DNA of 64,000 nucleotides, from assembly GCF_012931845.1 (NCBI RefSeq), contig NZ_CP051884.1:248001-312000 (forward strand). Reading direction: 5' to 3'. Below, in pieces: positions 43,632 to 45,180 of the stretch. Under the pieces are notes generated by a model. That model was not told the origin of the DNA. It saw only the letters and a list, made by a program, of their open reading frames with translations, and searched no databases. Made by a program: the position numbers and the translations under genes. Position 1 is the stretch's first letter. The number at the start of each line of letters is the position of its first letter. The stretch is from Cellulomonas taurus. Its GTDB lineage: Bacteria; Actinomycetota; Actinomycetes; Actinomycetales; Cellulomonadaceae.

Positions 43632-44999
43632 TCAGTGGGCGCCGACCGGCTCGGGGGCGACCGGCGCCGCGTCCTCCTCGGTGAACAGGTCCTCGGCCTG
43701 GGCGCGGTCGTACTGGGCGCGGTCGAGGATGCCCTCCCGCTTGGCGACGATGGTCGGTACCAGGGTCTGCCCGGCGACGTTCACCGCGGTGCGGCCCATG
43801 TCCAGGATCGGGTCGATGGCCAGCAGCAGCCCGACGCCCGCCAGCGGCAGCCCCAGGGTGGACAGGGTCAGGGTGAGCATCACGATCGCGCCGGTCAGCC
43901 CGGCGGTGGCGGCCGAGCCGACCACGGAGACGAAGGCGATCAGCACGTAGTCCCAGAACGACAGGTCGATGCCGAAGATCTGCGCCACGAAGATCGCCGA
44001 GATCGCCGGGTAGATCGAGGCGCAGCCGTCCATCTTGGTGGTCGCGGCCAGCGGCACCGCGAAGGAGGCGTACTCCGACGGCACGCCCAGGTTGCGCTCG
44101 GTGACCCGCTGGGTGACCGGCAGGGTGCCGATCGACGACCGGGACACGAAGGCGAGCTGGATCGCGGGCCAGGCGCCACGGAACCAGCGCGTGATGCTCA
44201 GGCCGTTCGTCCGCAGGATGACCGGGTAGACCACGAACAGCACCAGGGCGAGGCCGATGTACACCGCGATGGCGAACCGGCCCAGCGAGGCCAGCGACTC
44301 CCAGCCGTAGGACTCGACCGCGTGCCCGACCAGGCCCAGGGTGCCCAGCGGGGCCAGCCGGATGATCCACCACAGCACCCGCTGGATCACGGTGAGGGCG
44401 CTCTGCACGAAGGACAGGAACGGCTCGGCCTTGGCGCCGGTGCGCAGCACGGCGATGCCGATCACGATCGCGATGATCACGATCTGCAGCACGTTGAAGC
44501 TCAGCGAGGTGCTCAGGCTGCCGTCGTCGGCCGCGCTGGTGTTCGCGGTCAGGCCGAGCGGGTTACCGGGGATCAGACCGTCCAGGAAGTCCAGCCAGGA
44601 CCCGGTGCGGCCCGCCTCGTAGCCCTGGTCGGCCGACAGCGTGGTGTGCCGACCCGGTTGCAGGATCAGGCCGAGACCGATGCCGATCACCACCGAGACC
44701 AGCGCGGTGACCGCGAACCAGCCCAGGGTGCGGGCGGCGAGGCGGGCGCCGTTGGTGACGTTCCGCAGGTTGGCGACCGAGGCGACGATCGCGGTGAAGA
44801 TCAGCGGCGGGACGATGGCCCGCAGCAGGGTGACGAAGGACGACCCGATGGTGTCCAGGGTGGTGGCGAGCCAGTTCGGCGAGTCGTCGGCGGCGGGGCC
44901 GATCGCCAGGGCCACCCAGCCGAGGGCGACGCCCAGGACCAGGGCGGCGATGATCTGGAAGCCGAAGTTGCCGAGCACGGAGCGCAGGCGCGAGGACAT
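43632..44999 (-). CDS. Sodium symporter of the DAACS family, TcyP-like (cystine)
   Basis: A 455-aa secondary transporter with eight membrane helices and two re-entrant loops. Its fingerprints fit the L-cystine transporter TcyP better than glutamate or dicarboxylate carriers: AFVSRSSIGTLP, KMDGCASIYPAISA and PILDMGRTAVNVAGQ, where TcyP has SRSSAGAMP-like, GCAGIYPA and PLIDMGRTALNVSG. The C-terminal 40 residues are acidic. Importantly, a 23-codon leader peptide with a Cys codon near its end lies upstream, a known hallmark of cysteine-controlled attenuation in actinobacteria. Together these suggest cystine uptake. ATG 44999 with AGGACC-type site; the following gene is separated by a hairpin. Confidence 0.85.
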   Translation of the reverse strand: MSSRLRSVLGNFGFQIIAALVLGVALGWVALAIGPAADDSPNWLATTLDTIGSSFVTLLRAIVPPLIFTAIVASVANLRNVTNGARLAARTLGWFAVTALVSVVIGIGLGLILQPGRHTTLSADQGYEAGRTGSWLDFLDGLIPGNPLGLTANTSAADDGSLSTSLSFNVLQIVIIAIVIGIAVLRTGAKAEPFLSFVQSALTVIQRVLWWIIRLAPLGTLGLVGHAVESYGWESLASLGRFAIAVYIGLALVLFVVYPVILRTNGLSITRWFRGAWPAIQLAFVSRSSIGTLPVTQRVTERNLGVPSEYASFAVPLAATTKMDGCASIYPAISAIFVAQIFGIDLSFWDYVLIAFVSVVGSAATAGLTGAIVMLTLTLSTLGLPLAGVGLLLAIDPILDMGRTAVNVAGQTLVPTIVAKREGILDRAQYDRAQAEDLFTEEDAAPVAPEPVGAH

Positions 45000-45051
45000 G
45001 AGGACCTTTCAAGCGTGGTGCGGTGAGCTGATGTCGGAGCTGGAAGAACGC

Positions 45052-45123
45052 TCAACGACACAGCGCGCTGGCCACGCGGCGCAGGTCGACGGCACGACGC
45101 GTGGTGAGGTCCACCCCGGTCAT
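45052..45123 (-). CDS. 23-aa cis-acting leader peptide (Cys attenuator type)
   Basis: A short frame upstream of the TcyP-like symporter: ATG 45123 after an AGGGGGG ribosome site, stop TGA at 45054-45052, 52 bases before the symporter's ATG. The product opens MTGVDLTTRR and ends RRVASALCR, with AVDLRRVAS in between. This pattern (TRRxVDLxRVxxxxCR) is that of the actinobacterial putative leader peptides found upstream of sulfur- and cysteine-linked genes. Ribosome pausing at the Cys codon when charged tRNA-Cys is scarce would alter downstream expression. Confidence 0.82.
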   Translation of the reverse strand: MTGVDLTTRRAVDLRRVASALCR

Positions 45124-45144
45124 CTCGCCCCCCTGATCCTCGCT

Positions 45145-45180
45145 GCGGTCCGGAGCAGTCTAGGCACTGCTCCGGACCGC
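45145..45180 (-). terminator. Terminator after acetyl-CoA synthetase gene
   Basis: GCGGTCCGGAGCAGT (45145-45159) pairs perfectly with ACTGCTCCGGACCGC (45166-45180), loop CTAGGC. It separates acs from the leader peptide and symporter unit. Confidence 0.82.

What the first reader, a model, noticed from the sequence alone, without database searches (positions are those of the whole stretch)
45052..45123. Unannotated 23-codon Cys-type leader peptide before a TcyP-like symporter
Seen: a short frame with a strong ribosome site, ending RRVASALCR, 52 bases before the symporter. Known: actinobacterial leader peptides of the TRRxVDLxRV...C type precede sulfur and cysteine genes and respond to Cys supply. 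The symporter's own motifs (GCASIYPA, DMGRTAVNV) independently resemble cystine carriers. Two lines of evidence point to cystine import under attenuation control.
Basis: partly seen in the sequence, partly recalled or inferred. Interest (0 to 1): 0.75.

Follow-up and report, generated by a model that had tools for sequence, protein, structure and literature searches.

The report
Cysteine leader peptide before amino-acid symporter
A tiny gene with one conserved cysteine codon sits in front of a membrane transporter in this Cellulomonas genome, and the same pair recurs across many actinobacterial families, which suggests that cells turn the transporter up when cysteine is short.

Summary
On the minus strand a 23-codon ORF (45123-45052, MTGVDLTTRRAVDLRRVASALCR) with a Shine-Dalgarno lies 52 nt before an SDF-family symporter. 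It scores above cut-off for NCBIfam NF042934 'putative leader peptide' and is the only such hit in the genome. The pairing is conserved: 35 of 40 genus orthologues have the leader, 58 of 62 in other families of the class, and part of the home order.

New regularities: the Cys codon at the fixed position is UGU in all 111 Cys-bearing leaders before this symporter (TGC dominates elsewhere). In seven order-level relatives a stop replaces that codon while the motif survives. The spacer after the leader is unusually C-rich.

Not supported: a conserved hairpin or leader-RBS pairing, an intrinsic terminator, frameshifting, or placing the symporter inside the TcyP clade. The carrier does share two TcyP motifs absent from GltP, DctA and SstT.

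Best reading: ribosome stalling at UGU under Cys shortage relieves attenuation, perhaps Rho-dependent, of a carrier for cystine or a similar sulfur amino acid. Cys response and substrate are untested. The leader is of a known kind; its class-wide link to this unassigned carrier and the UGU/stop rule were not found in the papers searched.

The parts
45128..45134 (-). Shine-Dalgarno AGGGGGG of the leader ORF
   Evidence: sequence; comparable purine-rich sites precede the genus leaders
45052..45123 (-). leader peptide ORF MTGVDLTTRRAVDLRRVASALCR, NCBIfam NF042934
45058..45060 (-). UGU cysteine codon, proposed stall codon, two codons before the stop
   Evidence: TGT in 35/35 genus leaders and in 111/111 Cys-bearing leaders before this symporter
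45000..45051 (-). C-rich spacer between leader and symporter, candidate Rho-loading region
   Evidence: C/(C+G) 0.72 over its first 40 nt; 22 other 5' regions of the window range 0.35-0.61
45005..45010 (-). Shine-Dalgarno GAAAGG of the symporter (CGAAAGG-like in most genus members)
43632..44999 (-). SDF (PF00375) symporter of an unassigned subfamily with TcyP-like TM7/TM8 motifs
45146..45179 (.). 14-bp perfect inverted repeat between acs and the leader, likely the end of the acs transcript
   Evidence: sequence; not tested further

Best explanation
The ORF is a translated leader (uORF) that makes symporter expression depend on cysteinyl-tRNA. When Cys is short, the ribosome stalls with the UGU codon in its A site, just before the leader stop. 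The parked ribosome keeps the transcript productive, most likely by blocking Rho loading on the C-rich spacer directly downstream. When Cys is plentiful, the ribosome finishes and leaves, and transcription is cut off before the symporter. The symporter imports a sulfur amino acid, most likely cystine. Shown here: the leader, its conservation, the UGU rule, the C-rich spacer, and the absence of a terminator or conserved switch structure. Inferred: stalling, the Cys response, Rho, and the substrate.
For: Above-cut-off NF042934 match, unique in the genome. Leader before 35/40 genus orthologues and 58/62 orthologues from other families of the class, with 6/62 on the antisense control; the upstream neighbour acs is shared only within the window's own clade. 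Focal Cys codon TGT 111/111, against TGC 49: TGT 10 for the other Cys codons of the same leaders and TGC 35: TGT 0 in the 35 symporters. Leaders of the same family precede CysD, SsuE, TauD-like and sulfite/nitrite reductase-like genes. Poly-Cys small ORFs occupy the same place in some relatives (G335, G324, G189, G275). C>G spacer in 35/35 genus loci and 49/51 other leaders; C/(C+G) in the genus 0.65 with leader against 0.54 without (p=8e-4), in the order 0.64 against 0.58 (p=7e-4). No intrinsic terminator. TcyP-like TM7 and TM8 motifs. No sulfite reductase of the SirA/NirA-like type at E<=1e-100 in the window's genome. PMC1262725 proposed Rho, as in the E. coli tna operon, for mycobacterial Cys leaders.
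Against: No expression data. Only one Cys codon, where the tested mycobacterial cases have runs. Seven relatives carry a stop instead of the Cys codon, so in those the element cannot sense Cys at that codon. C-rich spacers are also seen, more weakly, without a leader. The symporter is outside the TcyP clade and has its own HP2 sequence ATAGxTGA. Across the genus, presence of the symporter and of the sulfite reductase are not linked (my tally: symporter in 27/56 with, 14/26 without). The shuffle and Fisher statistics are not corrected for relatedness.
Confidence: 0.6

Rival explanations
1. Translational attenuation as described for mycobacteria: after the ribosome leaves, the leader RNA folds over the symporter ribosome-binding site; a stalled ribosome keeps it open.
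For: In the window MFE fold GACCU...GCGUGG of the leader pairs with CCACGC...AGGUC over the SD (z -1.46). Mycobacterial Cys genes are reported to be under translation attenuation (PMC13236596).
Against: Over 35 genus loci, leader-SD pairing is close to that with shuffled spacers (0.13 against 0.11) and core-downstream pairing equals it (0.14 against 0.14); spacers run from 42 to 203 nt.
Confidence: 0.2
2. The conserved nascent peptide (RxVDLxRxxSAx) itself arrests the ribosome at the codon after SAx, whether this is UGU or stop, in the manner of TnaC; Cys-tRNA or another sulfur signal modulates the arrest.
For: Residues other than Cys are strongly conserved across families; seven leaders keep the motif with TAG/TGA exactly at the Cys position.
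Against: No arrest assay; the stop variants could be steps in loss of the leader, which is absent in several families of the order.
Confidence: 0.3
3. The leader is only a constitutive translated uORF that couples or insulates translation; the Cys codon does not sense anything.
For: Cys-less variants exist.
Against: UGU invariance against a TGC background; family links to sulfur genes; poly-Cys replacements.
Confidence: 0.1
4. The symporter carries aspartate/glutamate or dicarboxylates, and the leader ties it to Cys for another reason.
For: SDF family; NCBIfam sub-cut-off hits to DctA and GltP; closest solved structures are aspartate transporters; acs upstream in the window's clade.
Against: TM7/TM8 motifs are TcyP-like and lacking in GltP/DctA; acs is not a neighbour elsewhere in the genus.
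Confidence: 0.3

Closest known systems
NCBIfam NF042934 cis_reg_atten, 'putative leader peptide'
   Same: Matches above the curated cut-off; same RRxVDLxRVxSALC core
   Different: A curated model, not a tested regulator as far as I know; the window copy is tied to an SDF symporter
Polycysteine leaderless short ORFs of mycobacteria (Canestrari et al. 2020; paper not held, details from memory; models NF042933/NF042936 hit below cut-off)
   Same: Same RAVDLxRVA core, Cys near the C-terminus, upstream of Cys-related genes
   Different: One Cys codon instead of a run; preceded by a Shine-Dalgarno; no conserved RBS-sequestering fold found
Cys leader peptides predicted by Seliverstov et al. 2005 (PMC1262725)
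   Same: Cys leaders without terminators before cys operons; Rho proposed as for tna
   Different: Those had Cys runs and concerned cys/cbs operons; here a carrier, and C-richness is measured over many loci
E. coli TcyP (cystine/sulfocysteine:cation symporter)
   Same: GCAxxYPA and DxGRTAxNV motifs; SDF family
   Different: 30% identity, separate clade, different HP2 segment

Membership tests
NCBIfam NF042934 leader family | HMM score over curated cut-off | tested here: met
   35.1 against 27 bits
NCBIfam NF042934 leader family | short ORF directly upstream of a gene on the same strand, conserved there | tested here: met
   35/40 genus, 58/62 class
Mycobacterial polycysteine attenuators | run of Cys codons | tested here: not met
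   one Cys codon
Mycobacterial polycysteine attenuators | leaderless transcript | not testable with these tools
   a Shine-Dalgarno before the ATG argues against it; no TSS data
Mycobacterial polycysteine attenuators | RBS of the next gene sequestered by leader RNA | tested here: inconclusive
   possible in the window, no more than shuffles over 35 species
Mycobacterial polycysteine attenuators | response to Cys limitation | not testable with these tools
   no expression data
Classical transcription attenuator | intrinsic terminator between leader and gene | tested here: not met
   none found
Rho-dependent (tna-like) attenuator | C-rich, G-poor region after the leader | tested here: met
Rho-dependent (tna-like) attenuator | Rho dependence | not testable with these tools
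   needs bicyclomycin or a Rho mutant
TcyP cystine symporters | placement in the TcyP clade | tested here: not met
   own clade, though long branches make deep joins unsure
TcyP cystine symporters | TM7 GCAxxYPA and TM8 DxGRTAxNV motifs | tested here: met
   55 of 56 subfamily members; both motifs in 3 of 4 TcyP-clade references, neither in the 9 other references
TcyP cystine symporters | cystine transport | not testable with these tools
   needs uptake assay

The most novel reading that the evidence does not exclude
The VDLxRxxSAx peptide is an arrest peptide whose arrest site is the following codon. In most lineages this codon is fixed as UGU, so that the arrest reads cysteinyl-tRNA; in some it became a stop codon, so that the arrest reads termination. 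The same element controls a whole unassigned symporter subfamily across the class.
Probability: 0.25. Interest if true: 0.8.

Novelty: new member of a known kind. Interest (0 to 1): 0.55.

Why it matters
The leader gives a functional handle on a large SDF carrier subfamily that is annotated only as 'dicarboxylate/amino acid:cation symporter': it places the carrier in a Cys-linked set of genes in many actinobacterial families. The UGU rule and the stop-codon variants make a concrete question testable with single-codon swaps: does the leader sense Cys by codon alone, or does the peptide take part in the stall?

Tried and rejected
Leader-internal hairpin (TERR arm with SALCR arm): looked convincing by eye and by MFE, but shows no compensatory pairs in the genus, 51% pairing outside it, and the leader CDS is not more stable than same-peptide synonymous sequences (mean z +0.66). 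Leader-SD pairing: no better than shuffled spacers. Programmed frameshift at UGU: shifted frames open in 60/93 and 52/93, and no frame preference. Intrinsic terminator and sigma-70 consensus: none. Rfam: only sub-threshold noise. Symporter/sulfite reductase complementarity across the genus: none. acs as a conserved partner: only in the window's clade. No structure prediction was run: it would show the SDF fold already given by Pfam and not the substrate.

Full report
Observation. The window lies in a complete 3.44 Mb genome whose nearest named records are Cellulomonas. On the minus strand the order is acs (47195-45192), a 14-bp inverted repeat (45179-45146), the leader ORF (45123-45052) and the symporter (44999-43632). 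The leader reads MTGVDLTTRRAVDLRRVASALCR; it has an AGGGGGG Shine-Dalgarno, its single Cys codon is UGU (45060-45058), and its stop is 52 nt before the symporter ATG. It matches NF042934 'putative leader peptide' at 35.1 bits (cut-off 27) and the mycobacterial Cys-rich leader models below their cut-offs. It is the only over-cut-off hit in the genome.

Conservation in the genus. Of 82 genus genomes, 41 have the symporter; one has its upstream region cut by a contig end. In 35 of the other 40 the leader lies 42-203 nt upstream on the same strand. Five lack it. Two further genomes have a leader but no symporter; there it precedes a sulfite/nitrite reductase-like gene. Codon tables show a fixed peptide core with synonymous change at Arg and Leu, but TGT for Cys in 35/35.

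Conservation beyond the genus. In the order, 129 of 297 sampled genomes have the symporter. Microbacterium homologues fetched by name also lack it. In families outside the order, 58 of 62 symporters have the leader pattern, 43-291 nt upstream, against 6 of 62 on the antisense strand; a few extra pattern hits in that list are chance matches, the RxHVDL-type leaders are not. The likeliest history is that leader plus symporter is old in the class and was lost in several lines of the home order; I infer this from distribution, not from a reconciled tree. Other leaders of the family precede CysD, SsuE, TauD-like, MetQ-like, TIGR04028 substrate-binding and sulfite/nitrite reductase-like genes.

The UGU rule. 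At the fixed position (V-D-L-x7-C) before this symporter the codon is TGT in all 111 Cys-bearing leaders and a stop in seven (TAG 4, TGA 3). Other Cys codons in the same leaders are TGC 49, TGT 10; Cys right after VDL is TGC in 32 of 33 in the class set. Symporter Cys codons are TGC 35, TGT 0 in the genus and 28 to 3 in the class set. Taking leaders before any gene, the count is TGT 100, TGC 5 (some loci are counted twice there). Fisher p = 4e-33 ignores shared ancestry, so the figure is only indicative, but the contrast recurs in several families. I do not know the cause; wobble decoding by tRNA-Cys or an RNA constraint are possible.

Stop variants. In all four f14 genomes with the symporter (G158, G186, G240, G213), and in G099, G249 and G256, the motif is kept but a stop stands at the Cys position; G256's motif is the weakest. 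The four f14 sequences differ at synonymous sites while the core is kept. All held genomes of that family were covered. This says that the motif has a use apart from the Cys codon, or that the leader is decaying slowly.

Mechanism tests. No intrinsic terminator lies between leader and gene. A leader hairpin and leader-SD pairing failed their controls. The spacer is C-rich and G-poor in 35/35 genus loci and 49/51 other leader loci, whereas the region upstream of the leaders is balanced. Spacers with leader exceed upstream regions without leader in the genus and in the order, also when only loci above 0.65 GC are compared (p=0.006); the window spacer (0.72 over its first 40 nt) exceeds all 22 other 5' regions of the window. 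This fits the Rho-dependent, tna-like idea that Seliverstov et al. put forward for Cys leaders (PMC1262725), who themselves called that prediction rather weak. It is not proof.

The symporter. It is an SDF protein, 30% identical to E. coli TcyP, 29% to GltP and 27% to DctA. In a tree it stands apart from the TcyP and the GltP/DctA clades. It shares GCAxxYPA and DxGRTAxNV with TcyP references, not with nine others, and has its own HP2 segment. The TM8 Arg that binds the distal carboxylate in aspartate transporters is kept (role from established knowledge), which suits cystine as well as acidic amino acids. The window's genome shows no SirA/NirA-like sulfite reductase at E<=1e-100, nor do the other 12 genomes with the closest symporters (84-92% identity), so a reduced sulfur source would be useful; another type of sulfite reductase is not excluded.

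Verdict. A real, conserved, Cys-type leader of a known family. Its class-wide link to this symporter subfamily, the invariant UGU and the stop variants are, within the papers I could search, not described. Cys control and cystine transport remain predictions.

Noticed in passing
L135, L136, L137, L140, L141 (G075, G081, G014, G025, G042), upstream of the symporter: The five genus members without a leader share a GGAAG-N18/19-GTT box (seen in the sequences), which resembles a SigR/ECF-type promoter; perhaps a second, different control of the same gene.
   Followed up: partly
L317, L319, L311, L282, L267, L288, L284: Leader-like ORFs with TAG or TGA exactly at the Cys position upstream of the symporter.
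   Followed up: partly
L270 (G335), L269 (G324), L274 (G189), L216 (G275): Poly-Cys small ORFs upstream of the symporter in place of the single-Cys leader; only G335 keeps a VDL core, and a general search for Cys-rich ORFs was no richer on the sense than on the antisense strand.
   Followed up: partly
window 45146-45179: Perfect 14-bp inverted repeat CGGTCCGGAGCAGT/ACTGCTCCGGACCG between acs and the leader, without a T-tract.
   Followed up: no
L342 (G213) and G334:C11:128629-129975: Symporter matches with one in-frame TGA.
   Followed up: no
G000 whole genome: No SirA/NirA-like sulfite reductase at E<=1e-100, as in the other close-clade genomes that have this symporter.
   Followed up: partly
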